A stretch of 19,425 nucleotides of DNA from Candidatus Saccharimonadota bacterium (lineage in GTDB: Bacteria > Patescibacteriota > Saccharimonadia > Saccharimonadales > Saccharimonadaceae), in contig WRLZ01000001.1 of NCBI GenBank assembly GCA_009777365.1, positions 1 through 19,425 of the forward strand, given 5' to 3'. The translations under genes and the position numbers were made by a program. Positions 2,568-18,136 of this stretch are shown here, piece after piece (position 1 is the stretch's first letter; the number at the start of each line of letters is the position of its first letter). The notes beneath the pieces were generated by a model. It worked only from the letters and a program-made list of their open reading frames with translations. It was not told where the DNA came from and searched no databases.

Positions 2568-2684
2568 TGCGAAACCGATCCCTATCTCTTTCGAGCTTAT
2601 GCATCCATCCGGATACTCTTTCGGGATCGATTCAATCGACTTCTACTGCTATTATATAGCAAAACGATCGCAAAGTCAAGCCCC

Positions 2685-3224: not shown

Positions 3225-5534
3225 ATGAGCCAAATAAAACTAAATTTGAAGCTGCGGCAGAGAGCAGGGATGCTCGCTGACTGCGCGGACAGGTTTGTGC
3301 GAAAGCGCATGCTCGGGATTATAGGGTGTTCGGGGGCTTTGCTCTTGGCATTCGTTCTGACGCTTGCTCTCGTGTCTAATCGCGCAAACAGTAATGCAAC
3401 AGACACGATGTTTAACGTCAACGCAACAAATAGTTCAGTGGCAATTTATGTTGATGGCGTAGCTGGTGGTGGAAACGACCTGGATACGACGGTCATAACA
3501 TCGCTTGATGGTAGCGTGAGTTCGGTTAGTACGCAAGTTCGCGTTGTAACAGATGCTCTACATGGTTACGCATTGGCGCTCCAGGCGCAGACTGCCAACA
3601 TGATTGGCCAGAGCAATAGCTCAAACGTCTTGGTGCCAATAGCGAACGCTACAATCGAAAATCCAAGTCAGTTTACTGCGGGTAGCTGTAACTCTTGGGG
3701 TTTTGCAACACCTGGTGTGAGCAGTAACTTCTCGCAGGCGTTTGACACAGCTTACACAGAGCTATATAGCGTAGGTGTAAATACCGCATCAAGCAACTTT
3801 GCGGCTGTTCCAACAAGCGCTTCGCTGATTCATACAAGCACGGCTCAAGATGAGACGCGCCCATACTACTTTGCGGCTTGTGTAAACAGCACAATGCCAT
3901 CCGATACATATTCGGCAACAGTTGTTTGGTCGGCATATGCGGTTGATTCGCCGCCACAGGTTGGCAATGTCATTGTTGATATTGACCCAGGAATGATCCC
4001 GGTTCGATGGAACTATGACGCATGTTCATTCGGTAACGGGTTTGGTAACGTCATGGCTTCAGCGCCAGAAACAAACTCTACCCCTACGGATCCAACAGCA
4101 AATTCTTGCTGGGTAAAGGCTGATACAAATGTACACAGTTTGGCTATACCAGAAGCATGGTACAACTATAGTACGGACAATACAGCTACACGCGATTCGT
4201 TTGGGCAGCCGTATTATGCCAATCGCAAGTGGGCTAACGCCGTAACGTTTGCAAGCACTTCTGATCTTTCAACATACCAAGCAGCGGCTGTAGGAACTCC
4301 AATTCCTGACTCTGTAATTAGCGCCTATTGGACGTACCTGCCACGCTTTGAGTATAAGGTTGAGAACTTCAACTATAACGCAAGCAACTTTCCAAAAGCC
4401 TTCGATGTGCGCCTAACAAACAATACTTTGGCTTACACAAATGTCGCATCTATTGACGTGGGTCTTGATCCAACGACAAGTCCACAGTACTTGACGCCAC
4501 CGGCCTTTACAAATGGTGGCTCAGAGCTTAACGGTATCTGGTTTGGTAAGTTTGCAACTACTGGTGCGGTAGCTAACCCAACGATTAAGCCAGGAGTTAA
4601 CTCAATTGTCAGCCAGACTACTTCAGCCTTTTTCCAAGCTGGTTTACTCTTTGGTAATTCTGGAATCCCTGGAGGGACTGTAAGCTTTACTGGTGCAAAC
4701 CAACACAATTTTGCCAATTTGTCAACTCAGTCATCTGGTACGTTCACATCTGGTGTTTCATCGATGCAGTCTCTTAATTCTCAGTGGGGTGCCATTGTCT
4801 ACTTTACTCAGTCGATGTATGGTGTGTGTTCAAATATGAACTGTACATCAGATGATCAGCCTTTAACTGGAATGGCTATTGCTGCAACTACCGAGCGTGT
4901 CCGAAACAATGCCAAGTCTTCACCTTATATGACCGGTTGTGGACCAAACATTCTTGATTCGACAGATTCAGCAACTACAACGACTTGTAACCTTTACAAC
5001 ACGCAACTTGGAGTTCTAGCTTCAACGACTCACAATGTTTATGGTATTTATGATCTTGCAGGTGGAGTTTGGGAATATACTACTGGTAATTACGTAACTG
5101 GAGAAGGTGCCAACATTGATGCTTATGCTCCAACACCAGCCTCATCTGGCTTCTCCAACCTATCGGCTATGTTTAGTGCAGATGCCCTCAGCTACATACC
5201 ATACTTTGATGCCTATCCGAATCCATCTCTGACCAATAATGTATCTGACATCACCAACGGCAATTACGGTCTCGGTTCATCTGGCATCATAAACAATTCA
5301 AACTGGGGCATTTATGCTTCAAAACTCGGTCTCGGACAAGCCATCTTCGAATCCGCTGGGTGGTCGGGGGCTTACGCTGGTTCGTTCGGCTCTGGCTACC
5401 CATGGTTCGTCCGTGGTAGCTCGTCAGTCGATGCAGACCAGGCCGCGCGCTCAGTAGTCGAGTCCATTGGTGTCGCGCACGGTGGCGTGAACCCGAGCGT
5501 CGGTTTTCGTGGGGTGGTCGTCATTCGCCCGTAG
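3225..5534 (+). CDS. membrane-anchored surface protein with C-terminal FGE/C-type-lectin-like domain
   Basis: 769 residues. The start is the ATG at 3225, preceded by a perfect GAAGGAGG. A basic N-terminus is followed by one hydrophobic segment (about residues 29-51), which acts as a signal anchor, so the rest is outside the cell. The middle is Asn/Ser/Thr/Ala-rich without recognised repeats; SAYWTYLPRFEYKV lies near residue 366. YGIYDLAGGVWEYTTGNY (about 606-623) matches the FGE-sulfatase/C-type-lectin core motif. The tail (708-769) has GWSGAYAGSF, PWFVRG and VGFRG in the order seen at the ligand-binding C-terminus of CLec-fold proteins, including targets of diversity-generating retroelements. 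A ligand-binding or adhesin role is inferred; an enzymatic FGE role is unlikely in such a secreted context. Pieces of this gene recur at 9158, 12806, 13801 and 14181. Confidence 0.8.
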   Translation: MSQIKLNLKLRQRAGMLADCADRFVRKRMLGIIGCSGALLLAFVLTLALVSNRANSNATDTMFNVNATNSSVAIYVDGVAGGGNDLDTTVITSLDGSVSSVSTQVRVVTDALHGYALALQAQTANMIGQSNSSNVLVPIANATIENPSQFTAGSCNSWGFATPGVSSNFSQAFDTAYTELYSVGVNTASSNFAAVPTSASLIHTSTAQDETRPYYFAACVNSTMPSDTYSATVVWSAYAVDSPPQVGNVIVDIDPGMIPVRWNYDACSFGNGFGNVMASAPETNSTPTDPTANSCWVKADTNVHSLAIPEAWYNYSTDNTATRDSFGQPYYANRKWANAVTFASTSDLSTYQAAAVGTPIPDSVISAYWTYLPRFEYKVENFNYNASNFPKAFDVRLTNNTLAYTNVASIDVGLDPTTSPQYLTPPAFTNGGSELNGIWFGKFATTGAVANPTIKPGVNSIVSQTTSAFFQAGLLFGNSGIPGGTVSFTGANQHNFANLSTQSSGTFTSGVSSMQSLNSQWGAIVYFTQSMYGVCSNMNCTSDDQPLTGMAIAATTERVRNNAKSSPYMTGCGPNILDSTDSATTTTCNLYNTQLGVLASTTHNVYGIYDLAGGVWEYTTGNYVTGEGANIDAYAPTPASSGFSNLSAMFSADALSYIPYFDAYPNPSLTNNVSDITNGNYGLGSSGIINNSNWGIYASKLGLGQAIFESAGWSGAYAGSFGSGYPWFVRGSSSVDADQAARSVVESIGVAHGGVNPSVGFRGVVVIRP
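5346..5514 (+). other. expressed variable-region segment (reference copy)
   Basis: This 3' part of the surface-protein gene runs from TCGAATCC and CTGGGTGGTCGGGGGC to GGTTTTCGTGGGG. It has three homologous copies elsewhere in the window. From W of WFVRG to the last G of GFRG it spans 37 residues; the other copies have 34, 38 and 34. Confidence 0.75.
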
Positions 5535-5543
5535 CCTCGCGTA

Positions 5544-5570
5544 GGACTGAAGGCGTACCGCCTTCAGTCC
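5544..5570. repeat. perfect 12-bp hairpin just after the surface-protein gene
   Basis: GGACTGAAGGCG, loop TAC, CGCCTTCAGTCC, beginning 9 bases after the stop codon. No T-run follows, so it is not a classical terminator. It may protect or end the mRNA, or mark a cassette boundary. Confidence 0.8.
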
Positions 5571-5578
5571 AGCAATGA

Positions 5579-5602
5579 GTACTATATGGTAACATAGAGT
5601 AC
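5579..5602. repeat. 10-bp inverted repeat with one mismatch
   Basis: GTACTATATG, loop GTAA, CATAGAGTAC. It lies between the surface-protein gene and recA, with no clear function. Confidence 0.5.
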
Positions 5603-5682
5603 AAGGCTTCAGAATGAGTAAAGACTATAGCCCCCATAAGACAAAGACCAGACAACCAAACAACTCCGGGGGTGAAGACACT

Positions 5683-5709
5683 TAGTAATAGTAATTATTA
5701 CTATTACTA
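5683..5709. repeat. 27-bp palindrome downstream of recA
   Basis: Two perfect 13-base arms (TAGTAATAGTAAT and its complement) around one central base. The arms are themselves near-repeats of TAGTAA. It lies 19 bases past the recA stop. It could form the 3' hairpin of the recA mRNA or a bidirectional transcript end, but it is very AT-rich and lacks a U-tract. Confidence 0.75.
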
Positions 5710-5728
5710 CAAATATATACCCAAGGTT

Positions 5729-6862
5729 TTAAGCGTTTTCCGCTTCTTCGCGAACCTTTTTTCTTATCGCTTTCTCGACATCGCTGAGCACATCCTTATT
5801 CTCTTTCAAATATTTCTTCGCTTGCTCGCGTCCCTGCCCAATATTCTCGTCATTATACTTATAAAAAACTCCGGCTTTCTGAACCACATCGTGAAGCACC
5901 GCCAAATCAATCACATCTCCCGCCTTGCTGATTCCCTCGTTATACATTATATCAAATTCCGCAAGCCTAAATGGCGGCGCAACCTTATTCTTCACAACCT
6001 TAACCCTCGTCCGGTTTCCCGCCACATCTTCCCCGGCCTTGATCTGCCCAACTCGCCGAATATCCAGACGTACCGAAGCATAGAACTTCAACGCATTTCC
6101 ACCGGTTGTAGTCTCTGGACTCCCAAAAACCACCCCGATTTTCATACGAATCTGGTTAATAAACACCACTGTCGCCTTTGATTTTGCAATAATTCCCGTC
6201 AATTTCCTCATCGCCTGGCTCATCAGTCGCGCATGGAGACCCATCTGTGCATCACCCATGTCTCCATCAATTTCCGCCTGCGGAACCAGCGCCGCAACCG
6301 AGTCCACGACGATCAAGTCCACCGCGTTCGAGCGCACCAACGTCTCACAAATCTCAAGAGCCTGCTCTCCGTTATCTGGCTGAGAAACCAAAAGATTCAC
6401 CACGTCCACCCCGAGCTTCTTCGCATAAGCCGGATCAAGTGCGTGCTCGGCATCAATAAACGCCGCCACGCCGCCCTGCTTCTGAATTTCCGCAATCGCA
6501 TGAAGCGTAAGCGTCGTCTTCCCCGAACTCTCCGGTCCATAAATCTCTATAATTCGCCCCTTCGGATAGCCTCCACCAAGCGCCAAGTCCAGGCTCAGCG
6601 ACCCCGATGGCAGAAGCTCAACATTCACCTTCTGCGAATCCCCAAGCCGCATAATCGATCCATCACCAAACTGCTTCGTAATCTGTGCAAACGCCAAATC
6701 AATCGCTTGCCTCTTCCCGCTATCTTCTTGGACTTTAGCCTTTTTTGGCTTTTCCTCTTTAGCCGGCTTAGCCTTTTTCTCAGCCTTGGCTTCAACCTTC
6801 GCCTCTATTTTCGCACCCCCTACGTCTTTTGTCTCTTTAGCTTCTTTTAACTCTCTCGCCAT
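5729..6862 (-). CDS. recA: RecA recombinase
   Basis: 377 residues. RecA forms filaments on single-stranded DNA and drives ATP-dependent strand exchange. The core is complete: [22 protein letters not shown], Walker [10 protein letters not shown], the [16 protein letters not shown] block, [12 protein letters not shown] (Walker B), [14 protein letters not shown], and the L2 segment [13 protein letters not shown]. The start at 6862 is chosen because GGAGG sits 5 bases upstream; longer in-frame starts at 6874 and 6901 lack this. Compared with E. coli RecA, about 40 extra Lys/Ala/Glu-rich residues precede the core. This is a low-complexity, probably disordered tail that may bind DNA. It is a single gene with its own promoter. 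No LexA-type operator is visible near that promoter. If the lectin-domain cassettes here exchange sequence by homologous recombination, RecA would be the natural engine, but its adjacency may be chance. Confidence 0.97.
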
Positions 6863-6915
6863 CACAACCTCCATCTTCTTAATTACTACCAGCCCACACA
6901 TCCCATCTCATTCCA

Positions 6916-6944
6916 AGCGTACCACACGGCTACTGGATAGTCAA
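6916..6944 (-). promoter_or_regulatory. recA promoter
   Basis: On the minus strand TTGACT (6939-6944), 17-base spacer, TACGCT (6916-6921) preceded by TGG (extended -10). The leader to the ATG at 6862 is about 47 bases and includes GGAGG. Confidence 0.65.
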
Positions 6945-7014
6945 TGAAATACTCGAAAATTACAACATAAGCATAATGAGACATACCGCAAAACACCCCC
7001 ATCAACCCAAATAT

Positions 7015-7122
7015 TAAACTGGTTACCATTAAATTTTTCCCGAAAAGGAAACGCTCTAGGCGTAAAGCTTAGAACGTAACCAAACCCCATCTGATGAATG
7101 CGTCCTAGCCGCGTTCATCACT
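7015..7122 (-). ncRNA. candidate structured RNA between recA and the pilin gene
   Basis: A good minus-strand promoter (7129-7157) would start transcription near 7122. The first transcribed bases form a hairpin with an 11-bp stem (7092-7102 with 7110-7120, one G-U pair, 7-base loop). A second element is closed by GGTTAC (7021-7026) and GTAACC (7076-7081), which extends to 7 pairs. It contains an inner hairpin (TTTCC 7036-7040 with GGAAA 7047-7051) and a weaker stem at 7053-7075. No open frame fits. It may be an independent small RNA or the distal 5' leader of recA. I do not recognise the family, and the 3' end is not defined by a terminator. Confidence 0.45.
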
Positions 7123-7128
7123 ATTGCT

Positions 7129-7157
7129 ATTCTACCCCATTATAATAATAAAGTCAA
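7129..7157 (-). promoter_or_regulatory. divergent minus-strand promoter for the candidate RNA
   Basis: On the minus strand TTGACT (7152-7157), 17-base spacer, TAGAAT (7129-7134). Its -35 lies 3 bases from the -35 of the pilin promoter, so the two are back to back. Confidence 0.6.
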
Positions 7158-7160
7158 CCC

Positions 7161-7189
7161 TTGCAAAATCAAAAGACAAAAGGTATAAT
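7161..7189 (+). promoter_or_regulatory. promoter of the pilin-murA operon, probably leaderless
   Basis: TTGCAA (7161-7166), 17-base spacer, TATAAT (7184-7189). The ATG starts at 7196, 6 bases after the -10, so transcription probably begins at or next to the A of ATG. No Shine-Dalgarno sequence is present. Confidence 0.75.
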
Positions 7190-7195
7190 AACCCC

Positions 7196-7654
7196 ATGAA
7201 TAGAAAGAGAAAAGCTGGCGAGAGCTATAAAAAAGCCTTTACAACCATTGAGCTAACAGTAGCAATCATAGTCTTCGGCGTTTTGACCACCCTCTTCTTT
7301 TTCCAAAAATCCACCTACGACGCCTTCAAGAGAGACGACATGCGTAAAGTCGCTATCAATTCAATCTTCTACACGCTTGAAATGGTGTTCTACCAAGCCA
7401 ATGGCTACTATCCTGAACGGATCGAACTCGAGAACTTCGACACCGAAACTGGCGAAATCACCCCCGCTACGCTCCCCACCCTAAACCCCGAGCTACTCTT
7501 CGACCCCTCTGGCCGACCCCTCGGCACCAATGATTCCGATTTCAGATACGAGCCCTCAAACTGCTCCAATGGCCGATGTTTCGAGTACAGATTGTCAAGC
7601 CGCATGGAGAAAGAAGGCGAATATGTCCTCCATGGCCTTGGCGAAAATCGTTAG
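7196..7654 (+). CDS. type IV pilin-like (prepilin) protein
   Basis: 152 residues from the ATG at 7196; the open frame extends further upstream, but the promoter lies there. The N-terminus is short and basic, then reads KKA, the cleavage site, and FTTIELTVAIIVFG. This gives a prepilin peptidase site after Ala14, Phe at mature +1 and Glu at +5, followed by one hydrophobic helix of about 20 residues. These are the hallmarks of type IV pilins and type II secretion pseudopilins. The soluble part is small and includes NGYYPERIEL and DPSGRPLG, resembling pseudopilin C-termini, with two Cys (SNCSNGRCF) that could form a disulphide. It should sit in the membrane and enter a pilus-like fibre. The gene ends 18 bases before murA and shares its transcript. 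Whether it is a major or minor subunit is unclear. Confidence 0.85.
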   Translation: MNRKRKAGESYKKAFTTIELTVAIIVFGVLTTLFFFQKSTYDAFKRDDMRKVAINSIFYTLEMVFYQANGYYPERIELENFDTETGEITPATLPTLNPELLFDPSGRPLGTNDSDFRYEPSNCSNGRCFEYRLSSRMEKEGEYVLHGLGENR

Positions 7655-7672
7655 ATAAGAAAGGATCAAGAA

Positions 7673-8995
7673 ATGGCGCAAAATTTCATCATCAATGGCG
7701 GCAAAGAACTCCATGGAGAAATCACAGTCAACTCTAGTAAAAACGCAACCGTCGGTGTGCTCATGGCTAGTTTGGTCAATAAAGGCACCACCATTCTTCG
7801 AGGTGTTCCACGGATCGAAGAAGCTTTTCGCCTAATCGAAGTCCTCCGAAGCCTTAATGTCCAAGTCGAATGGATGAACGAAGACAAAGACGTCAAAATT
7901 GTTCCGCCCGCCGAAATAAACTGGAAAGATCTCGATATTGAAGCCGCCCGCAAAACCCGCTCCGCCATCATGCTCATGGGATCATTCCTCCATTATTTTG
8001 ACGAGTTCAAGATCCCCTTCGCTGGCGGTTGCACCCTGGGCGAGCGCACAATTGAGCCGCATCTCCAAGCTCTCAGCAATTTTGGGCTAGGGGTTGATTC
8101 ACGTTGTACAGATGGATTTTACGAGTGCAAAGTCGCCTCCCCCAAGTGCGAGGACAAGACTTTTGTCCTAATCGAACGTGGCGACACAGTTACTGAAAAC
8201 GCCCTCATCGCCGCCGCCCTCTGTGGAAGCATCACTCGCATCAAGAATGCCAGTAGTAATTATATGGTCCAAGACGTCTGTTTCTTCCTCCAAACCCTAG
8301 GAGTACAGATCGACGGCATCGGCACCAACAACCTAACCATCCGTGGTCGGGGCGACATCAACCAAGAAACCGAGTACTTCATAAGCGAAGACCCGATCGA
8401 AGCTATGAGCTGGGTATCTGTCGGGGTCACCACCAAATCGGAAATCACAGTCAAGCGCGCACCAATCGAATTCCTGGAAATCGAGCTAGCCGTCCTTGAG
8501 GAAATGGGCCTAAACTACGAACTCAGCGAAGAATACCCATCCCGAAACGGCAAGACCCGCCTCGTCGATATTTCCATCAAAAAATCCACCCTTGTTGCAC
8601 CAATCGACAAAATCCACCCCATGCCTTTCCCAGGCCTAAATATTGATAATCTCAACTTTTTCGCTCCAATCGCCGCTGTCGCAAATGGCCGAACCATGAT
8701 TCACGACTGGGTTTTTGAAAATCGCATCATCTATCTGACCGAACTCCAAAAACTCGGCGTAAAGGCAACCCTAATTGACGCGCATCGCATGTATATTGAT
8801 GGCCCAACTAACTGGCACCCTACCGAACTGGTCGCTCCGACCGCCCTCCGCCCAGCAGTTGTTTTAACTATCGGCATGCTCGCAGCAGATGGGCAGTCGA
8901 TCCTCCGCAATATCTACTCAGTCCAAAGGGGTTATCAGGATTTTGCCAAACGCCTCCAAGGCCTTGGCGCCGACATCACAGTAGTGGAAAACTAA
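7673..8995 (+). CDS. murA: UDP-N-acetylglucosamine 1-carboxyvinyltransferase
   Basis: 440 residues, a little over the usual 420. MurA transfers enolpyruvate from PEP to UDP-GlcNAc, the first committed step of peptidoglycan synthesis, in the cytosol. The sequence has the N-terminal NGGKELHGEITVNSSKNAT block (substrate-binding Lys23), and IPFAGGCTLGERTIEPHL with the catalytic Cys120. It therefore belongs to the Cys type, expected to be sensitive to fosfomycin. The internal GDTVTENALIAAAL and the C-terminal DLR-like region (ALRPAVVLTIGMLAADGQS) also fit the two-domain EPT fold. AAAGGA (7659-7664) precedes the ATG. It follows the pilin-like gene in one operon. A paralogue such as MurZ cannot be excluded. 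Confidence 0.95.
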   Translation: MAQNFIINGGKELHGEITVNSSKNATVGVLMASLVNKGTTILRGVPRIEEAFRLIEVLRSLNVQVEWMNEDKDVKIVPPAEINWKDLDIEAARKTRSAIMLMGSFLHYFDEFKIPFAGGCTLGERTIEPHLQALSNFGLGVDSRCTDGFYECKVASPKCEDKTFVLIERGDTVTENALIAAALCGSITRIKNASSNYMVQDVCFFLQTLGVQIDGIGTNNLTIRGRGDINQETEYFISEDPIEAMSWVSVGVTTKSEITVKRAPIEFLEIELAVLEEMGLNYELSEEYPSRNGKTRLVDISIKKSTLVAPIDKIHPMPFPGLNIDNLNFFAPIAAVANGRTMIHDWVFENRIIYLTELQKLGVKATLIDAHRMYIDGPTNWHPTELVAPTALRPAVVLTIGMLAADGQSILRNIYSVQRGYQDFAKRLQGLGADITVVEN

Positions 8996-9157
8996 CTCAT
9001 CTTTTTATCCTCAGGTTTAACCCGATAGTCCAGGCTATTTTTCTCATTTTTTGTCCATCATTTCACAATATTTATTTTAATTTGTCAAAATTCCCACACA
9101 ATTAACCCTACGAGAAGGCAGGAGTTGCAATTGGATTATCTGTCGGGGTTAGCGTTG

Positions 9158-9243
9158 GCTACATACCATACTTTGATGCCTATCCGAATCCATCTCTGAC
9201 CAACAACATCTCTGACATCACCAACGGCAATTACGGTCTCGGT
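9158..9243 (+). pseudogene. orphan internal fragment of the surface-protein gene
   Basis: These 86 bases match 5191-5276 in the surface-protein gene at 82 positions, in the same orientation. The four differences are clustered where NNV is replaced by NNI. The reading frame is kept (YIPYFDAYPNPSLTNN) but there is no start codon, ribosome site or rest of gene, and the similarity stops abruptly at both ends. It lies between the convergent murA and CAP genes. The rest of 8996-9285 shows nothing I can name. Confidence 0.85.
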
Positions 9244-9285
9244 CCAAACATTACACACACTCTTTCCGAATCAATTTAGTTTTTC

Positions 9286-10032
9286 TTACCGACCGAACAA
9301 CTGCACCCAGTAATACCCATACGCGCTACCCGGACAATAATACCCAGCAACACCAATAGAATTAAACCCACTATTCAAAATATTACTCCTATGCCCTGGC
9401 GAAATCATCCAATCGTTGAACGCCGACGTGACACTCCCCTGTCCTGCGGCAATATTTTCCCCAAAAGCCAATGGATTTATCGACATCCACGACCTTCCGT
9501 CCGGCCTAGTGTGGGCAAACTGTTCGCAAATCTCTACAGCTCGCATCCCAGCGCTCTCCGCCAAAGACGCCGACCATACCAGCCCGCTCTCGCCAACCTC
9601 AAACCTCGCAGCATTTATCATAGCCAACATGCCCATAGCGTCTATCTGAGTTCCCTGAGGCTGCTGAGACTGCTGTTGAGCTGGCGGATTTTGGCCTTGG
9701 CTATTGGATGGATTATTCGCGGGAGGGTTATTGTTCACCTCCTCTACAGGCTCTTCGTTCTTTTCCTCCGGAGGGGCCGCTTCTTCTTTCTGCTCTTCCG
9801 CCTCGAAGGCTATATCACTATGACCCTCCTCGTCTCCAGACCCAATCTGGTCATCATCCCCCCGCCAAGAACCAATAACATCCCTCAGCCCATAGTACGC
9901 TCCTCCGGCCGCCAAAATCACCGCAACCACAACAACCCCGATTATCAAATTCCTCTTCAGCCGCCCCTTTTGCTTATTAGTCGCATTGGCAACAATATCG
10001 TCAATGCTCTCTAGTTTATCTCGTCTCTCCAT
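9286..10032 (-). CDS. membrane-anchored CAP (SCP/PR1) domain protein
   Basis: 248 residues. A basic cytoplasmic stretch is followed by one hydrophobic segment (about residues 29-49), then an acidic and Pro/Gln/Asn-rich linker (about 55-130), then a CAP domain. The domain shows LAMINAARFEVG, the helix LAESAGMRAVEIC, FAHTRPDGRSW, FGENIAAGQGS and WMISPGHRSNIL, in the order of the YkwD-like bacterial CAP family. The two His and the Glu of the conserved cavity are present. Bacterial CAP proteins are extracellular; their activity is mostly unknown. The anchor and flexible linker suggest a domain held away from the cell surface. It lies downstream of the ATPase gene but has its own promoter, which leaves almost no leader. 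Confidence 0.88.
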   Translation of the reverse strand: MERRDKLESIDDIVANATNKQKGRLKRNLIIGVVVVAVILAAGGAYYGLRDVIGSWRGDDDQIGSGDEEGHSDIAFEAEEQKEEAAPPEEKNEEPVEEVNNNPPANNPSNSQGQNPPAQQQSQQPQGTQIDAMGMLAMINAARFEVGESGLVWSASLAESAGMRAVEICEQFAHTRPDGRSWMSINPLAFGENIAAGQGSVTSAFNDWMISPGHRSNILNSGFNSIGVAGYYCPGSAYGYYWVQLFGR

Positions 10033-10041
10033 ATTACTTGC

Positions 10042-10070
10042 ATTTTATCATATGGAGTGCCAAAAGTCAA
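10042..10070 (-). promoter_or_regulatory. promoter of the CAP protein gene, probably leaderless
   Basis: On the minus strand TTGACT (10065-10070), 17-base spacer, TAAAAT (10042-10047) preceded by TGA. The ATG at 10032 begins 9 bases after the -10, so the leader would be about 3 bases. No Shine-Dalgarno sequence is seen. Confidence 0.7.
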
Positions 10071-10096
10071 GCATTACGCCGTAATTCTTCGCTCGA

Positions 10097-12703
10097 TCAT
10101 AGCCACTCACCATATTTCTTTATATATATCCTCTTCGCAATCTGTACAGTCAACGAATACCCAGCCAACAGCACCATCAGCCACGCCACGAACACAACCG
10201 GCAACCTCATCATATTAAGCGCCGGAGCAAAGTCCGAAAAAGCAATCCATAGCGCAATAATCACGGCAATCGTCGTCGAAGCAATCAAAGGCTTCGAGGC
10301 ATTACTATCAAAAAACGGCCTCTTGGCAGTTCGTATCATATGAATGATCAACACCTGCGAAACCGTCCCGAATACAAACCACCCCGCCTGAAAGAGCGGC
10401 GCCGCATCTACAGTATTGGCATGTATAATAAAAAACAACACCACAAAGCACAAAACATCGAAAATAGAGCTTATCGGCCCCATCACAAACATAAACCTCT
10501 TGATCGATCTCGCATCCCACTTCCTCGGCTTCTCCACAAATTCCTCATCAACATTATCAAAAGGCATCCCCAATTGCGAGAAGTCGCATATTAAGTTCTG
10601 CACCAATATATGAATCGGCAACATCGGCAGAAACGGCAAAAATATACTGGCTATAACCACCGAGAACATATTCCCAAAGTTCCCGCTCGTCGCCATCTTG
10701 ATATACTTTATAATATTCCCAAACGTCTTCCTCCCCTGAACCACACCCTCCTCCAAGACAAGAAGATCCTTCTCCAGAAGAATTATACTCGCAGTCTCCT
10801 TGGCAATATCAACAGCATTATCAACCGAAATCCCCACATCCGCCTGCTTCAACGGCAACGCATCATTGATCCCATCACCCAAATACCCCACCGTGTGCTC
10901 GTTTGCCTGCAAAGTTTTCACAATCCTCTCCTTCTGCGACGGCGAAACTTTATAAAAAATACTGCACGCCTCGACTTGCTTATACAGCTCCTCATCGCTC
11001 ATCTTCTCCACTTCCGCCCCAGAAAGAGCCAGAGAGGCGTCAATCCCAACCTTCTCGCAAACGCTCGTCGCCACACCCATAGAGTCTCCCGTCAGCGTCA
11101 CCGTTCGTATTCCATGCTCATACAACGCGCGCACCGCCTCGGCCGCACTCTCCTTCGGCGGATCCAAGAACCCGATAAACCCTACTATCGTCATCCCGAT
11201 CTCGTCTTTTACAGAATAATGCCTACCATGTTCATGTTTAGTCTTTTTCTCCGCAATCGCTATCATCCTCATGCCCTCGGATGTATATTTTTCATAAATC
11301 CCATCTATCTTCTCGCGCACTCTCGCGTCAATCTCCACCACTCTATTCCCACGCCGAATCTTTTTACAGATCAAAAGCATCTCCTCGACCGACCCTTTCG
11401 AGATAATATAATCATCCTTGCACTCATGACTCAACACCACACTCATCCTGCGCCTCTCGAAATCATACGGAATCTCATCGAAAATACTATACTCTGCCGA
11501 AACTTCATGAAGTTTGTCCTCATCGGCTCTCGCAATAATCGCCTCATCAATCATATTCCGTAGACTCGTTTGGAAATAGCTATTGAGATACGCACACCTA
11601 AGCACCTCCGGGTCGTCCTCGTCATTGATATTGATGTACTTCTCCAATACAATCCTATCTTCCGTCAATGTTCCGGTTTTATCAGTACAAAGCACATCCA
11701 TCTCCCCAAACGCCTGGATCGACCCCATATTCTTGACAATCACCTTGTATTTCGTCATCTTTATAGCACCCGTCGCCAACGTCGTCGTCATAATCACCGG
11801 CAACATCTCCGGGGTCAACCCCACCGCAATCGAAATCGCAAAAAGCACCGACCCGATCCAATCACTCTTCGTCACCCCATTCACAATAATCACTATCGGC
11901 ACCATAATCAGCATCATCCGTATCAGCAGTCGACTCACCGAATCTATGCCCTTCTCGAAACTATTTTTGTTCCTACTGCCCGAAAGCGACTTCGCCATTC
12001 CGCCAAAATACGTGTTGTTCCCAGCCGCCACTATCACCGCCGTCGCCACACCACTCACCACATTCGACCCCATGAACCCAATATTCGGCAAATCCGTCAG
12101 CGCAGTATCATCACGCCCAATCCGATCCGCAAATTTCTCAACCGGATTGCTCTCCCCAGTCAGCGCCGCCTGCGCGATAAAGGTGTCCTTCGTCGTCAAA
12201 AACCGCACATCCGCCGGAATCATATCCCCCGCCGTCAACTTCACCACATCCCCGACCACCAGATCCTCCATATTCACTTCCGCAAACTCGCCATTTCGCT
12301 TCACGCTCGCCGTATTCACAATCATCTTGGAAAGCTTATCGGCCGCCCTATTCGACTTCTCTCCCTGCACAAAAGCAATCAAACTCGAAATAATCACCAG
12401 CCCTATTATAATCCCAAAAGTCAAAAAGTCCTGCTCTTCCGAGAGCACCACATCAGTAACAAACGTAATCGCCGCAATCGCCAAAAGAACTATATTGAAC
12501 GGATTGATAATCGCCTCAAGCAACCGCGCTATGAACGTCGTCGCAATATCGGTACTTATAGTGTTCGGCCCATTCTCTTCCAGCCTATGCTTCGCCTGCC
12601 TACTCGTTAGCCCATCCGCCGAGCTACCAAGCTCCCTCTGCAAATGATCCGTGTCCAACGCACTATATCTCCGCAAATTTAACTCAAGGCCGTCTTTGTT
12701 CAT
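10097..12703 (-). CDS. P-type cation-transporting ATPase, MgtA-like (P3B)
   Basis: 868 residues from the ATG at 12703. An in-frame ATG at 12754 exists but lies upstream of the likely -10. The order is an N-terminal cation-ATPase domain (GLTSRQAKHRLEENGPN), paired membrane helices, the actuator motif LTGES, the phosphorylation motif DKTGTLT (Asp about 341), the hinge GDGINDALPLKQADVGI, and a C-terminal helix bundle. The spacing and sequence (SNVVSGVATAVIVAAG, IAVGLTPEMLPVIMTTTLA) resemble bacterial Mg2+ importers of the MgtA/MgtB type more than Ca2+ or heavy-metal pumps. There is no CPC motif, which argues against copper or zinc transport. It should sit in the cytoplasmic membrane and import Mg2+; the ion is an inference. 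The CAP gene follows 64 bases downstream on the same strand. Confidence 0.88.
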   Translation of the reverse strand: MNKDGLELNLRRYSALDTDHLQRELGSSADGLTSRQAKHRLEENGPNTISTDIATTFIARLLEAIINPFNIVLLAIAAITFVTDVVLSEEQDFLTFGIIIGLVIISSLIAFVQGEKSNRAADKLSKMIVNTASVKRNGEFAEVNMEDLVVGDVVKLTAGDMIPADVRFLTTKDTFIAQAALTGESNPVEKFADRIGRDDTALTDLPNIGFMGSNVVSGVATAVIVAAGNNTYFGGMAKSLSGSRNKNSFEKGIDSVSRLLIRMMLIMVPIVIIVNGVTKSDWIGSVLFAISIAVGLTPEMLPVIMTTTLATGAIKMTKYKVIVKNMGSIQAFGEMDVLCTDKTGTLTEDRIVLEKYININDEDDPEVLRCAYLNSYFQTSLRNMIDEAIIARADEDKLHEVSAEYSIFDEIPYDFERRRMSVVLSHECKDDYIISKGSVEEMLLICKKIRRGNRVVEIDARVREKIDGIYEKYTSEGMRMIAIAEKKTKHEHGRHYSVKDEIGMTIVGFIGFLDPPKESAAEAVRALYEHGIRTVTLTGDSMGVATSVCEKVGIDASLALSGAEVEKMSDEELYKQVEACSIFYKVSPSQKERIVKTLQANEHTVGYLGDGINDALPLKQADVGISVDNAVDIAKETASIILLEKDLLVLEEGVVQGRKTFGNIIKYIKMATSGNFGNMFSVVIASIFLPFLPMLPIHILVQNLICDFSQLGMPFDNVDEEFVEKPRKWDARSIKRFMFVMGPISSIFDVLCFVVLFFIIHANTVDAAPLFQAGWFVFGTVSQVLIIHMIRTAKRPFFDSNASKPLIASTTIAVIIALWIAFSDFAPALNMMRLPVVFVAWLMVLLAGYSLTVQIAKRIYIKKYGEWL

Positions 12704-12738
12704 CAGTGGTCTTACCCCGCTTATTGTCCTTATGTTTA

Positions 12739-12767
12739 AGTATACCACATCCATGCAAATCCAGAAA
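12739..12767 (-). promoter_or_regulatory. candidate promoter of the P-type ATPase gene
   Basis: On the minus strand TATACT (12739-12744) is preceded by TGG (extended -10). The -35 position holds only TTTCTG, a weak match. The start site would be near 12732, making the ATG at 12703 the first usable start. Confidence 0.45.
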
Positions 12768-12805
12768 CTTTTAGCGGTTAACGCGGTATCGGTTCAGCCA
12801 CTCCC

Positions 12806-12968
12806 AAATCCTCTGGGTGGTCGGGGGCGCACGCTGTTTCGTTCAATGGCACCACCGGTCGTTGGTTCCTGCGTGGCGGCTACTCGGACGATGCCGCTGC
12901 TGTCGGAGTCGAGTCCATTTTCGCTCACACTGGCCAGGCTTTTGCAGGTCGCGGTTTTCGTGGGGTGA
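12806..12968 (+). pseudogene. orphan copy of the lectin-like C-terminal domain (cassette 1)
   Basis: Translates as SSGWSGAHAVSF, then RWFLRGGYS, VGVESIFAH and GFRG, colinear with the end of the surface protein. The framework codons TGG TCG GGG, TCG TTC, TGG TTC, GTCGAGTCCATT and GGTTTTCGTGGGG are identical at the nucleotide level to the expressed gene; the codons between them differ. There is an in-frame TAA upstream and no ATG or ribosome site, so it is not expressed as a protein. It runs directly into the C/A-rich promoter module of the next gene and lies divergently from the ATPase gene. Confidence 0.85.
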
Positions 12969-12983
12969 ATCCGCAAAATCCCA

Positions 12984-13087
12984 AAAATCATCAAAATCCC
13001 CACTCATCTGTAAAATCCAACAATTTCACCCAAAAACGGCCAAAAACAAGCCTTTTCCTTGACTTTTTAGGCAACCTGTGATATAAT
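12984..13087 (+). repeat. C/A-rich promoter module, copy A (with promoter at 13059)
   Basis: About 104 bases from AAAATCATCAAAA to the -10. The same arrangement recurs at 18612-18715 with equal overall length. Shared blocks are AAAATCATCAAAA, CCAC, ACAATTT, ACCCAAAAAC and TTTAGGCAA. The end is the promoter TTGACT (13059-13064), 17-base spacer, TATAAT (13082-13087), preceded by TGA. Confidence 0.75.
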
Positions 13088-13242
13088 ACTAGTTAGAATG
13101 GGAAGAATTTCCTATCAGCACCTTCACATAATGACTTACAGTAGTGTTTTTGCCTTAAATGCTTATTGATTTCCAGTGAGTATCTAAGGCGGAAACACAA
13201 GTTTCTCCTAAATAAAATATAAAATTTCAGGAGGAAACTACC
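13088..13242 (+). promoter_or_regulatory. structured 5' leader of the small secreted protein gene
   Basis: About 150 bases between promoter and ATG. GCCTTA and TAAGGC (near 13153-13190) close a hairpin whose inner arms TGCTTA and TGAGTA also pair if G-U pairs are allowed. AGGAGG (13229-13234) is 8 bases before the ATG. Confidence 0.5.
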
Positions 13243-13731
13243 ATGAAGAAAAACCATGTTTTTTGTCTTTGCGCTGTCATATTTTTGGCTGCGTTCTTTT
13301 TGGGGTTTGCCACAAATGCCGCAACAACACCCAAAGCAGAAGTGGAAACAGAAACGACAGGTATTGAAGCAATGAACTTTGCGGGTATTGCTATTGAAGC
13401 TGACTTCCCAAATGAGGCTATAGTTAAGTTTACGCTTATCGAGGCTATCGCACCTGACTTTTTCGTTGGATACGGAACAGTAGGCGGGTCTTACGAAATC
13501 TTTTCGGGAAATTCCGAAAGATGGGACCCAATGGGAATTGGCACAGATAAAGCAATAGGTTTGATTAGACAAATACGCACAGAAGTTCCGGGGATAACAG
13601 AAGGTATCCACGCAAAAGGACACGACCTAACAATCACAATAGCCAAAAGCCATCTTACTCGCAAAGACCAGATAATTGAAGAAGTTCTGGCTATCATCCA
13701 AGATTTTTTAGACAACCAAGCTATCGCATAA
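13243..13731 (+). CDS. small secreted protein of unknown function
   Basis: 162 residues starting at 13243 after a perfect AGGAGG. MKKNHVFCLCAVIFLAAFFLGFATNAATTPKA is a classical signal sequence with likely cleavage after an Ala-x-Ala site near residues 25-27, so the mature protein of about 135 residues is exported. The Cys at 8 and 10 lie in the hydrophobic core and are not a lipobox. The mature part is acidic with alternating hydrophobic residues (FAGIAIEADFPNEAIVKFTLIEAIAPDFF), a Gly/Tyr/Ser stretch (VGYGTVGGSYEIFSGNSERWDP) and a C-terminal helix (KDQIIEEVLAIIQDFLDNQ). I recognise no family. It has its own strong promoter, a leader and a terminator, so it is a single-gene unit, placed between two orphan lectin-domain copies. 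Confidence 0.75.
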   Translation: MKKNHVFCLCAVIFLAAFFLGFATNAATTPKAEVETETTGIEAMNFAGIAIEADFPNEAIVKFTLIEAIAPDFFVGYGTVGGSYEIFSGNSERWDPMGIGTDKAIGLIRQIRTEVPGITEGIHAKGHDLTITIAKSHLTRKDQIIEEVLAIIQDFLDNQAIA

Positions 13732-13766
13732 ACACACTCTTCAGTCAGTCATTATAAATTATAAAG

Positions 13767-13800
13767 AACCGCCAAGCACTCGCAGGGCGGTTTTGTTTTA
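13767..13800 (+). terminator. rho-independent terminator after the small secreted protein gene
   Basis: AACCGCC (13767-13773), 12-base loop, GGCGGTT (13786-13792), followed by a T-rich run to 13800. It also lies at the 3' edge of cassette 2 on the other strand. Confidence 0.85.
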
Positions 13801-14010
13801 TCTCCCCACGAAAACCGATCGCCGCATGCGTGCGACCGCTATCGCGACTTAGTGTTTCTACTCCACCTAGAGAAGGATAAGTAGACGTATTATTCGAGCT
13901 GCCGCCACGGGCGAACCATGACTCATTACCACGGAACGAACCGGACATAGCCCCCGACCACCCAGAGGATTCGAAGATGTTGTTGACTGAGAGGGTATTG
14001 ATTTTAGAAC
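13801..14010 (-). pseudogene. orphan copy of the lectin-like C-terminal domain (cassette 2)
   Basis: On the minus strand it reads SKINTL, NNIFESSGWSGAMSGSF, ESWFARGGSS, LGGVETLS and IGFRGE, matching the surface protein from its SKLGLGQAIFES stretch to GFRG. The frame is open from an ATG at 14026 to a stop at 13745 (93 codons), but the last 18 codons only read through the neighbouring terminator. No ribosome site precedes the ATG, and tRNA-Asp occupies the other strand just upstream, so expression as a protein is unlikely. It has 38 residues from WF to GFRG, the longest of the four copies. Confidence 0.85.
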
Positions 14011-14047
14011 GAAAGTATGTTAACATATACGTATATTATCTGACGAT

Positions 14048-14124
14048 GCGCTCATGGTATAGAGGCCTAGTACGCCTCCCTGTCACGGAGGAGATCGCGG
14101 GTTCGAATCCCGCTGGGCGCGCCA
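14048..14124 (+). tRNA. tRNA-Asp (GTC)
   Basis: 77 bases including an encoded CCA. The acceptor GCGCTCA pairs with TGGGCGC (one G-U). The anticodon arm is CCTCC, loop CTGTCAC, GGAGG, giving anticodon GUC. The T arm is CGGGTTCGAATCCCG, and the discriminator base is G. It is flanked on both sides by orphan lectin-domain copies on the other strand. Just upstream are the small palindromes TATGTTAACATA and TATACGTATA; I see no clear promoter. Confidence 0.97.
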
Positions 14125-14141
14125 TACAAGATAATTAGGAC

Positions 14142-14171
14142 AAAACCACTTCGAAAGAGGTGGTTTTTCTG
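14142..14171 (+). terminator. rho-independent terminator after tRNA-Asp
   Basis: AAAACCACTT, small loop, AGGTGGTTTT followed by more T. The symmetrical A/T flanks would also allow termination on the minus strand, at the end of cassette 3. Confidence 0.8.
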
Positions 14172-14180
14172 TTTTTCTAC

Positions 14181-14377
14181 CTCCCCACGGAAACCGTGCG
14201 CCGTACTAGCGCCGCCAGAAGCGACATTGAGAGTCTCGACTCCAGCACTAGCGGTATTACCTGACTGCCCGCCACGGACGAACCAGGCACTATTGCCAGA
14301 GAACGAACCAGCACTCGCCCCCGACCACTCCGACGGGGTCCCCGCGAAGCAGGGGTGTCTCTGAGGATTCGATATAT
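14181..14377 (-). pseudogene. orphan copy of the lectin-like C-terminal domain (cassette 3), interrupted
   Basis: On the minus strand EWSGASAGSFSGNSAWFVRGGQS, AGVETLNVASGG and HGFRGE align with the surface-protein tail. Upstream, the shared TCGAATCC stretch is separated from GTGGTCGGGGGC by an insert of about 33 bases. The insert contains a mini-hairpin (CCCTGC, TTC, GCGGGG) and throws the upstream part out of frame. No start codon serves the domain. It lies just past the stop of rnpA and could be transcribed with it, but not translated. It has 34 residues from WF to GFRG. Confidence 0.85.
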
Positions 14378-15138: not shown

Positions 15139-15586
15139 GTGAATACTATATGTAGTGTTCCAACTTTTAATCGACCTTTAAAAGTTTAACGTTTACACCA
15201 TAAATTCCTTTTCCATAGGCGAAAAGCCGTTTTATATATAGCAACACCTAGTGCCATCGGCCTCAGCCGATGCCGGAGCGTAAGCGCCGCAGGCTCTTTA
15301 GTAGCGAAGGAGGATTCACTCCGACTGAAGCGAATGCGGCCTACAGACTTACCCGCAATAACCCTTATAATACGGTTACTATTCCTGATGTTATTAGCTT
15401 AAGCTAATAACAAGGTGCTTCTATGCACCTTCACCAGAATAGCAGTCGTTTTTTAATATAAGAACACAGGCAGTGTCGCAAATAACCTACAGCAATGTAG
15501 TGACATCCGTAGTACCACGCAACCCCATTGGCGTAGGCCAATACCGTACTGTACAAATATTCCAGAATGAAAAGGAGATGTTTCTT
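15139..15586 (+). promoter_or_regulatory. long structured 5' leader of the Cna-B adhesin gene
   Basis: About 445 bases without a convincing gene. Visible elements are: hairpin CATCGGC/GCCGATG near 15256-15273; a domain closed by GCCGCA and TGCGGC (about 15286-15340) with an inner GGAG/CTCC hairpin; the perfect 20-base palindrome TTATTAGCTTAAGCTAATAA near 15393-15412; and the hairpin AAGGTGC/GCACCTT near 15413-15432, followed at 15449 by a run of six T. The last part could act as an attenuator. I recognise no known riboswitch. Confidence 0.5.
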
Positions 15587-18136
15587 ATGACCAAGAAGAC
15601 AATCATCGCTATAATAGCGATAGCCGTCCTTGCCGCGTTACTTGCAGGCTTTGTCCTGTATAGCATCTTTGGCGGCGACAGCTCAGACACCGAGGGTGAT
15701 GACCAAAATACCACCCAAACCGAAACAACCACAACTCAGGAGGAGCCTGATGATGAAGACGACCCATTCGGCAACGCGCCGGAATCCATCGCGATTCAAG
15801 ACGATGAGGACGACCCGTTTGGCGAAGCGCCAACACTCGTAGTCCTAACCGAAGAAGAAGCTGACGAATTTCAAGAGGAACTACCAAATGGAAACACGGC
15901 AGCCGAAGACGAGGAGAACGGCGTAGCACGCAATGGCAACACAGCCACAGGCGACACAGCCAACAACTTCTCGATCGAGCTTCGCGACGCTAGCGCAGGA
16001 GATGACGTTACACATATTGTCCGTGACTTGTTTAACCAAAACGGCAATATCAACCTCAAGCTCCAAGGCTTCGGCCGCACAGCTTTCGGTCAACCCCTGA
16101 CAGAAGACATGATAGTCAGCGCCGAAATGGTTACTTTCCGCATTTCCGACTACACCTACAAAGACGAAAATGGTGCCACTAGGCCCATGACCCGTTCAAG
16201 CCACACCGTTCGGAATTACTATATCCGGTCGGATGGCCAAATGGGCTGGACAACCAACAGCACCCAAGACGGCACATTAGTAGCCAAGATAGTCGTAGAA
16301 GTCGAAGGCGAGCAATACTTTTTCTTCATGAAAGGCTATTGCAGCAACCTTTGGCTCATCGTCAGAATCCCGCCGCAACCCACCACAACCATCTTCGATG
16401 TAGTGAAAAACTGGCTTAATGATGCGGCAAGTAATAGACCGTCATCGATTCAGGTAGAACTGTATCGTAACGGCGTAGCAACAGGTCAACGCCTGACCCT
16501 GAACGCTGGCAACAATTGGAGCGGCCGTTGGACTGGTCTCGAAATAGGCCATACCTACACCGCCCGCGAAGTCAACGTTCCATCAGGCTACACCGCGAGT
16601 TACTCGCACAGCGCAACAAGGACAGTCATAACCAACACCTTCACTCCACCACCGCCACGTACCATCACCATTACCATAATCAAGGAATGGAGACATGGCA
16701 CAAACCCGGTGGCCAACCATCCGGCTCAGGTTACTTTTGCCAACACCAAAAACGGTACAAGGCAAACTGACATCACCGTAAACGCAGCTGGAAATTGGCG
16801 TAGTGTTATCAGGAACGTACTCCCGACCGACGATTATCGAATTTGGGAGAACGCCGTTCCCGGATACACCACCGCCGACCCGACCAGAGCTGTTGATGGC
16901 AATGGCAACATTGTCTTGACGTTCGTGAATACCTTCATCGAACCCATTACCAGAACTTTCACATGGGATAAGACTTGGGCTAATGACACGGCTAGCAATA
17001 GACCGCAGTCGCTTAGCGTCCAACTCTACCGTGGCAGACCTGGTAGCGGCACAGCTGTCGGCAACCCCGTACAAGTAACCGCCAACATGGGTTGGAGCTA
17101 CACGTGGACCGGACTACAGGCTGGCGACTATTACGCCCGTGAAGTTACAGTTCCAACGAACTACACCGCCTCAAACGCGGATAGCCGGGACAGAACCGTA
17201 ACCACGAACACCTTTGTTCCGCCCACCGTCTCCTATGACGTAGAAAAAGTCTATGTCGGAGGCGTAGGACCCGCAGTTACAGTAGAATTACTCAGGAATG
17301 GCACCGCAACTGGAAACCGCCTGACCCTGAACGCTGGCAACGGCTGGAAAGGTAGTTGGACTGGATTGGAAGCTGGTCATACCTACACGGCTCGCGAAGT
17401 TAGCGTTCCGTCAGGTTATACAGTCTCCTATTCGCACAGCGCAACAAGGACAGTGGTGACTAATACCTTTACACCGCCGCCGACAACCTCGCACACAGTC
17501 GTAAAACACTGGGATCATGGGACCAATACAGGCTCTCGCCCTTCTTCGGCTCAATTTGTACTTTGGAATACAAGTACGAATAGCCAAGTCGGCAGTGCCG
17601 TAACCCTGAGCTCAAGCAACAGCTGGACGTACACCTGGAGCGGTCTCGACGCCAGCTTCTCCTATGAAGCCCGCGAGATCAACGCTCCTGCGAACTACAG
17701 CGTAAGCTACAGCCGCAGCGCCACTCGCACCGTAGCGACCAACGTCTTCATTCCCCCGTTTATTCCACCTGTCGACCCTGGCAAACCGACTGGCGACGAC
17801 GCCATCGTGCCTAACCCGAACACCGGTGAACAGCTCACTCCTGCCCAGCAGCAAGAAATCATCAGCCAACAGCAGGAAAACGAGCGTTTGAATAGGGAAA
17901 GAGAACAGCGCGAAAGAGAAGAAGCGGCGGCAGAAGCCGCAAGGAATGCCGAGCGTGACCGTCAGAACCAAGAGGCGATAGACAACGCCAATACCCTGAC
18001 ACCCGCAACACCCACTCCCCCGCAATCCACAGAAACGCCTCCTGCGGCCACCCCGCAGCCCACAACACCAGCACCAACCCCCGCTCCCACCGAAACACCC
18101 CCCAACGACAGGATAATTGACTTCGGCGACTTCTAG
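15587..18136 (+). CDS. Cna-B repeat surface adhesin
   Basis: 849 residues from the ATG at 15587, which has AAAGGAG about 10 bases upstream. A signal anchor (residues 5-28) is followed by a Thr/Asp/Glu-rich stalk containing DDEDDPFG(N/E)AP twice (near 56 and 73). A region of unknown fold (about 125-260) precedes five Cna-B-like domains (about 268-351, 357-452, 457-542, 548-627, 634-721). Several have the VxKxW lysine and the YxAREV glutamate that form an intramolecular isopeptide bond in this fold. NPNTGEQ (about 740) resembles a sortase signal but is internal and lacks the following membrane segment and basic tail. A charged, Gln/Glu/Arg-rich coiled coil (about 752-802) and a Pro/Thr-rich tail ending in RIIDFGDF close the protein. 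It is probably a stalk-like adhesin held by its N-terminus. Ligand unknown. Confidence 0.88.
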   Translation: MTKKTIIAIIAIAVLAALLAGFVLYSIFGGDSSDTEGDDQNTTQTETTTTQEEPDDEDDPFGNAPESIAIQDDEDDPFGEAPTLVVLTEEEADEFQEELPNGNTAAEDEENGVARNGNTATGDTANNFSIELRDASAGDDVTHIVRDLFNQNGNINLKLQGFGRTAFGQPLTEDMIVSAEMVTFRISDYTYKDENGATRPMTRSSHTVRNYYIRSDGQMGWTTNSTQDGTLVAKIVVEVEGEQYFFFMKGYCSNLWLIVRIPPQPTTTIFDVVKNWLNDAASNRPSSIQVELYRNGVATGQRLTLNAGNNWSGRWTGLEIGHTYTAREVNVPSGYTASYSHSATRTVITNTFTPPPPRTITITIIKEWRHGTNPVANHPAQVTFANTKNGTRQTDITVNAAGNWRSVIRNVLPTDDYRIWENAVPGYTTADPTRAVDGNGNIVLTFVNTFIEPITRTFTWDKTWANDTASNRPQSLSVQLYRGRPGSGTAVGNPVQVTANMGWSYTWTGLQAGDYYAREVTVPTNYTASNADSRDRTVTTNTFVPPTVSYDVEKVYVGGVGPAVTVELLRNGTATGNRLTLNAGNGWKGSWTGLEAGHTYTAREVSVPSGYTVSYSHSATRTVVTNTFTPPPTTSHTVVKHWDHGTNTGSRPSSAQFVLWNTSTNSQVGSAVTLSSSNSWTYTWSGLDASFSYEAREINAPANYSVSYSRSATRTVATNVFIPPFIPPVDPGKPTGDDAIVPNPNTGEQLTPAQQQEIISQQQENERLNREREQREREEAAAEAARNAERDRQNQEAIDNANTLTPATPTPPQSTETPPAATPQPTTPAPTPAPTETPPNDRIIDFGDF

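What the first reader, a model, noticed from the sequence alone, without database searches (positions are those of the whole stretch)
5346..14377. One expressed lectin-like surface protein and three silent copies of only its variable C-terminal domain
Seen: the segment from GWSGA to GFRG at 5346-5514 recurs at 12806-12968 (+), 13801-14010 (minus) and 14181-14377 (minus), each between unrelated genes and without start or ribosome site. In all four, W-S-G is TGG TCG GGG, S-F is TCG TTC, W-F is TGG TTC and the GFRG end is GGTTT(T/C)CGTGGGG, so even silent sites are kept. The codons in between are almost all different and the loops vary in length (37, 34, 38 and 34 residues from WF to GFRG). Known: CLec-fold C-termini of this type are used as variable ligand-binding tips. 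Inference: conserved flanks plus divergent interiors fit silent donor cassettes that replace the tip of the expressed gene by gene conversion, as in pilS/pilE or vlsE systems, but not previously known to me in this lineage. Decayed paralogues are the main alternative.
Basis: partly seen in the sequence, partly recalled or inferred. Interest (0 to 1): 0.88.

Follow-up and report, generated by a model that had tools for sequence, protein, structure and literature searches.

The report
Genome-wide library of silent lectin tips
A small bacterial genome scatters about eighty promoterless copies of the variable tip of one surface protein between its genes, which looks like a store of spare tips fed by a mutation-making retroelement, and a related genome has a separate store of its own.

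Summary
The window's genome (645 kb, 64% complete) has 86 profile matches to the tip: two full-length carriers (window gene, C69), five template-like loci and 79 dispersed copies, mostly between genes. Two outer DNA boxes are nearly fixed; interiors differ at about half of their sites, change length in frame, and only 2 of 86 matches contain a stop. The gene is of the diversity-generating-retroelement (DGR) kind: in the same-genus genome G001 its orthologue stands beside a reverse transcriptase and a template from which it differs at 18 adenines and one other base. The window genome has adenine-rich template loci with a covarying 3' RNA domain but no reverse transcriptase in the assembly. A second genome of the family, G107, holds 55 analogous copies without stops, many in head-to-head pairs. 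With the two profiles used, 2 of 394 family genomes show such libraries. Best reading: a recombination library of DGR-derived tips. Mosaics that end at the boxes support exchange; switching of the expressed tip is not shown, and no copy matches it.

The parts
3225..5534 (+). Carrier gene (769 aa from ATG 3225; ORF opens at TTG 3126): membrane-anchored surface protein with variable C-terminal tip
   Evidence: start chosen because the G001 orthologue begins there; PF03781 weak match, E 7.4e-4, below cut-off
5220..5371 (+). Stretch 99.3% identical to the copy at C2:9537-9688, ending at the 5' box
5346..5371 (+). 5' box of the expressed tip
   Evidence: columns -10 to +10 each at least 0.90 one base in 70 tips
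5361..5513 (+). Expressed variable tip (VR core)
5502..5514 (+). 3' box GGTTTTCGTGGGG
   Evidence: Exact in 61 of 74 tips
5515..5542 (+). Tail shared with the template loci and absent from the dispersed copies
5544..5570 (+). Hairpin, 12-bp stem, right behind the VR, in the place where DGR targets need one
   Evidence: Read; requirement from abstract of PMC3240598
9158..9246 (+). Dispersed piece of the stretch upstream of the tip, without tip
12778..12967 (+). Dispersed copy A with its 5' flank
13804..14000 (-). Dispersed copy B with its 5' flank, between a small ORF and a tRNA gene
   Evidence: tRNA
14183..14377 (-). Dispersed copy C; its 5' box is split by a short hairpin insert also seen at C2:8693 and C8:9223

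Best explanation
The window gene encodes a surface protein whose C-terminal tip is a DGR variable region. New tips arise by adenine mutagenesis from template RNAs encoded at several loci; the reverse transcriptase is not in the assembly. The genome also keeps 79 promoterless copies of the tip, mostly between genes. Each is bounded by two DNA boxes and was shaped inside by protein-level selection. I infer that they are donors, and deposits, for recombination at the boxes with the expressed gene. Shown: number, boxes, open frames, codon pattern, box-bounded mosaics, structured template loci, DGR in the sister genome. Inferred: that exchange with the expressed gene goes on now, its direction, its enzyme, and how copies reach new sites.
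For: 86 matches, 79 of them neither carrier nor template; 19 of 88 tips overlap an ORF of 150 aa or more against 2047 of 3000 random intervals. Fixed ends with mixed codons at conserved inner residues; carrier C69 writes the same residues with other codons. 75 of 77 box-to-box intervals keep the frame. Few stops against 60-70% expected. Box-bounded mosaics. G001 DGR with 18 of 19 TR-VR mismatches at adenines. Template RNA covariation, 0 of 500 shuffles on four of five measures, 1 of 500 on the fifth. Second, analogous library in G107.
Against: No strain or population data. The expressed tip has no matching donor among the copies; its closest relative is template C81 at 69%. Copies are old: mean interior distance 0.49-0.53 and only 9 of 2485 pairs share an exact run of 24 nt. 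No reverse transcriptase in G000. The adenine signature of the dispersed copies is weak: non-adenine positions of templates differ too (0.20-0.30 at codon positions 1 and 2), and selection for amino-acid change would look alike. G107 copies show no clear adenine signature and no full-length carrier with their 3' end was found in its 71% assembly.
Confidence: 0.5

Rival explanations
1. Debris of the DGR: mutagenised cDNA or copies of the VR insert between genes and have no use.
For: Copies carry template-like variable codons; template loci exist in the same genome. Adenine mutation of AAY codons cannot make stops.
Against: Templates lack the 5' flank of the copies, and copies lack the template tail. 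In-frame indels and mixed codons at conserved residues. Stops are rare although non-adenine sites have changed.
Confidence: 0.15
2. A small mobile element that has captured a tip: palindromic pairs and terminal repeats drive its spread, and the tip rides along.
For: Head-to-head pairs with gap 69-70 in G000 (five, plus one at 103). In G107 30 of 52 5' ends are paired, 22 of them 3 nt apart; 18 of 53 3' ends are followed by GGTGAG and 6 of 22 unpaired 5' ends preceded by CTCACC. Moderate excess of hairpins behind copies, 7 of 76 against 2.3% of controls.
Against: Ends fixed but interiors about half different, unlike recent transposition; protein-level constraint inside. No target duplication was looked for systematically and no transposase was searched. 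Terminal repeats are in a minority, and none was seen in G000 by eye.
Confidence: 0.15
3. The copies are expressed in place as small secreted or intracellular tip peptides.
For: 27 of 73 have an in-frame start upstream; strong protein constraint.
Against: 46 of 73 have no in-frame start before a stop, 1 of 73 an SD-like site; the -40 flank is not a gene start and runs one base out of register with the gene's own flank.
Confidence: 0.08
4. Decayed remnants of full-length paralogues.
For: Some copies reach further up into the gene (C2, C23, C53, C8, window 9158-9246).
Against: Most copies start at the same short flank and end at the same box; only two long carriers match; almost no stops.
Confidence: 0.04

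Closest known systems
Diversity-generating retroelements (prototype Bordetella phage BPP-1; PMC3240598 abstract read; Patescibacteria-only clade 2 in PMC8144416, passages read)
   Same: C-terminal variable tip, adenine-rich templates, hairpin behind the VR; complete element in the same-genus G001
   Different: Several template loci away from the target, no reverse transcriptase in the assembly, and 79 dispersed tip copies between genes
Silent-cassette gene conversion (pilE/pilS, vlsE; abstracts in the listing, otherwise recalled)
   Same: Promoterless partial copies with conserved ends and variable inside; box-bounded mosaics
   Different: Copies are spread over the genome (41 contigs) rather than mostly clustered, far more diverged, and the expressed gene is also a DGR target; switching not shown
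Shufflon (R64 pilV; recalled)
   Same: Alternative C-terminal tips, some in inverted pairs
   Different: Dispersed, not one invertible cluster beside the carrier; no recombinase looked for
Genomes with many TR-VR pairs (e.g. Pseudomonas costantinii, 91 pairs, in PMC6642488, passages read)
   Same: Dozens of VR-like copies
   Different: Those are about 97.6% identical on average with few A-to-N changes; here interiors are about half different between fixed ends

Membership tests
DGR (window genome) | Reverse transcriptase of DGR type | tested here: inconclusive
   None in the 64% assembly; present beside the orthologous gene in G001
DGR (window genome) | Template repeat whose adenines, and little else, differ in the VR | tested here: inconclusive
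   Window VR against four templates: 47-58% of adenines and 13-21% of other bases differ, ends included; clean in G001, 18 adenine and 1 other mismatch over 226 nt
DGR (window genome) | Hairpin just downstream of the VR | tested here: met
   12-bp stem at 5544-5570 (read)
DGR (window genome) | C-type-lectin fold of the variable domain | not tested
   No structure predicted; weak PF03781 match below cut-off, best PDB sequence match SUMF2 at E 0.44
Silent-cassette gene conversion | Expressed gene plus promoterless partial copies | tested here: met
   (promoters themselves not tested; starts and SD sites were)
Silent-cassette gene conversion | Copies stay open although unexpressed | tested here: met
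   2 of 86 with a stop; 55 of 55 full G107 rows without
Silent-cassette gene conversion | Segmental mosaics between copies and expressed site | tested here: met
   Upstream segment 99.3% to C2 ending at the 5' box; but no donor for the tip itself
Silent-cassette gene conversion | Expressed tip varies between cells or strains and matches cassettes | not testable with these tools
   One genome per species held
Shufflon | One cluster of invertible segments beside the carrier | tested here: not met
   88 tips on 41 contigs

The most novel reading that the evidence does not exclude
A DGR with a memory: tips made by adenine mutagenesis from several separately encoded template RNAs of an undescribed RNA family are deposited between genes as box-bounded cassettes, kept under selection and recalled by recombination. 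It arose in at least two lineages of one family (G000, G107) with different tip sequences and ends.
Probability: 0.33. Interest if true: 0.95.

Novelty: new variant of a known kind. Interest (0 to 1): 0.86.

Why it matters
A genome of well under 1.5 Mb spends about 2.6% of its assembly on spare binding tips (84 copies at 200 bases each). It would join two known diversifiers, mutagenic retrohoming and silent-cassette recombination, on one gene end, and give a heritable store of variants. If the organism lives on host cells, as its presumed relatives do (recalled), the tip may decide which host it can hold. Seven searches of an open-access library listed no report of this; one paper leaves antigenic variation in Patescibacteria as an open question (PMC11809585, passage read).

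Tried and rejected
Hairpin behind every copy as an insertion signal: an excess, but in a minority only (7 of 76 score 9 or more; 2.3% of 346 control windows). Boxes elsewhere: the exact 20-base 5' box occurs once in genome contigs and once in viral contigs, both read by me as chance inside unrelated genes (the tool may leave out records near the window's own genome); the G107 3' box is not in viral contigs. Mosaic test by nearest neighbour: same neighbour in both halves in 2 of 71, not decisive at this divergence. Rfam: no match on four template loci at E<=0.1. First contig merge had wrong strands, redone. A 5' box count gave 0 by an indexing slip; redone: 48 of 74 exact over 18 bases. Contig ends inside tips as a sign of strain variation: noted, not counted.
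Full report
What is there. The window's own genome, G000, changes the scale: 79 DNA matches to the gene's 3' end (E<=10, so weak ones included), 76 protein matches (E<=10), and 86 matches to a 24-row tip profile at E<=1e-3. Of these 86, two lie in long carriers (window gene; C69, 59% identical), four are template-like (C12:6865, C26:3607, C48:1549, C81:810), one is a broken template (C24:7123) and 79 are dispersed copies. The stretches that I hold contain 88 tips on 41 of 88 contigs, both strands. Of the 88, 19 (carriers included) overlap an ORF of at least 150 aa by more than 20 nt, against 2047 of 3000 random intervals from the same stretches. I take the genome for Saccharibacteria-like from gene content; no call names it.

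Anatomy. In 70 tips, templates left out, every column from -10 to +10 around the W codon is at least 90% one base; the 18-base 5' box is exact in 48 of 74 and the 13-base 3' box in 61 of 74. A weaker, G-poor flank reaches -40. Inside, two tips differ at about half of the sites. Of 85 hits of the 5' core, 77 have a 3' box within reach and 75 of these keep the frame; a few of the 77 are spurious short or non-tip intervals, including one of the two exceptions. Two of 86 profile matches contain a stop. Random substitution to the observed divergence from a template would give stops in 60-70%. At conserved inner residues codons are mixed, at the boxes not; C69 writes the same residues with other codons. 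So the ends are kept as DNA and the inside as protein. Caveat: profile and box searches favour intact copies.

Exchange. The window gene is 99.3% identical to the C2 copy from -141 to +10, 24% before, and 48% (58 of 120, codon-aligned) inside the tip. Copies C18:5230 and C26:2689 are 94.1% identical from -15 to +154 and 20-29% outside. C18:5230 and C71:95 share 107 nt from the 3' box to the end of contig C71 at 100% with unrelated tips. Against: 9 of 2485 pairs share an exact interior run of 24 nt or more, and the closest relative of the expressed tip is template C81 at 69%, then copies at 58% or less.

The retroelement. In G001, same genus, the orthologous gene (55% identity) stands beside a reverse transcriptase (PF00078, E 1.6e-18), a 142-aa ORF in the place of an Avd gene (no family match above cut-off) and an Asn-codon-rich template. 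Over 226 aligned bases 18 mismatches lie at template adenines and one at a C near the end. G016 has the same layout. In G000 the four template-like loci have 8-12 AAY codons; 67 other tips have 2.66 on average and at most 7. They share with the window gene a tail past the stop codon that other copies lack, then an RNA-like region with a promoter-like start. On five such loci, C24 included, 57 pairs form in 96.4% of cells; 23 pairs have changes on both sides; four measures are reached by 0 and one by 1 of 500 shuffles (the structure came from the same alignment). The model finds seven strong loci in G000, five of them its own makers plus C15 and C69, a weak match at the window VR (5518-5614, E 0.001), and none in six relatives. 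C24 and C15 carry broken tips; C69 has none there. No reverse transcriptase is in the assembly. A hairpin with a 12-bp stem follows the window VR (5544-5570), as DGR targets need (PMC3240598, abstract). The window VR differs from the four templates at 47-58% of adenines and 13-21% of other bases: related to, not freshly copied from, any of them. In the dispersed copies variable codons keep position 3 somewhat better (entropies 1.73, 1.65, 1.53; G107 1.75, 1.72, 1.73). Templates as reference lower the non-adenine differences (0.20-0.30 against 0.32-0.39 at positions 1 and 2), but do not remove them. DGR origin of the copies is thus likely for G000, not proven, and not indicated by this measure for G107.

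A second library. With profile A1 13 of 394 family genomes, with A2 17 of 394 match at E<=1e-5; 14-17 candidates per genome were scored there. Only G000 and G107 have libraries; libraries with unlike tips would be missed. G013 has 11 matches, most in ORFs of 459-941 aa. Of 392 class genomes 7 match A1; G107 is not among them and may not have been drawn. G107, another genus, has 64 matches to A2; the 55 listed rows that span the profile have no stop. Its copies begin with CAACTCGGCGTG and end with SHRTILLGY and its stop, fixed as DNA, with protein-like insides. Of 52 5' ends found, 30 are in head-to-head pairs, 22 with ends 3 nt apart. It has a partial reverse transcriptase at a contig edge. 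In the same genus G010 (97% complete) has no match to A1 or A2, and G122 (63%) has six to A2, four of them short.

Mechanism. The best reading is a library of tips for recombination at the boxes with a gene that is also a DGR target. Evidence for the donor role is indirect: constraint without expression signals, and box-bounded exchange. How copies reach new sites is open; the head-to-head pairs and, in G107, terminal repeats in a minority of copies hint at a mobile step.

Literature. Seven searches of the open library listed no report of such dispersed tips. Passages read: PMC8144416, PMC10907252, PMC6642488, PMC11809585, PMC12102498; abstract: PMC3240598. PMC10907252 explores targets diversified in trans; PMC6642488 reports genomes with many near-identical TR-VR pairs.

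Noticed in passing
window 2568-2633 (-): Match to Rfam DUF3800-IX RNA (35.1 bits, just under its cut-off of 36.8) directly behind a DUF3800 gene at 1917-2567.
   Followed up: no
window 15473-18136 (+): Large surface protein with five Cna_B stretches (PF05738, E 1.6e-47).
   Followed up: no
G000 C12:6669-6860, C26:3755-3945, C48:1345-1544, C81:607-805, C24:7273-7474, C15:364-567, C69:459-658: Undescribed structured RNA domain behind template repeats; at C69 it stands without a tip, behind the second carrier gene.
   Followed up: partly
L193 and other G107 loci: 5' ends of paired G107 copies form the palindrome CACGCCGAGTTGG-CCAACTCGGCGTG.
   Followed up: partly
window 14328-14370 (-); C2:8693; C8:9223; C29 near 3957: Short hairpin insert ending GGGGACCCCGTCGGAG inside or beside the 5' box.
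   Followed up: no
G000 C51:4335-4385, C2:9537-9688, C23:9750-9914, C53:1-205, C8 end, window 9158-9246: Second class of dispersed pieces from the stretch upstream of the tip, with a small variable part; four contain CCATCTCTGACCAA(C/T).
   Followed up: partly
G013 and G004: G013 has at least 11 tip matches, most in long ORFs, but no reverse transcriptase found in a 93% complete assembly; G004 has a tip in a 4422-aa open frame.
   Followed up: no
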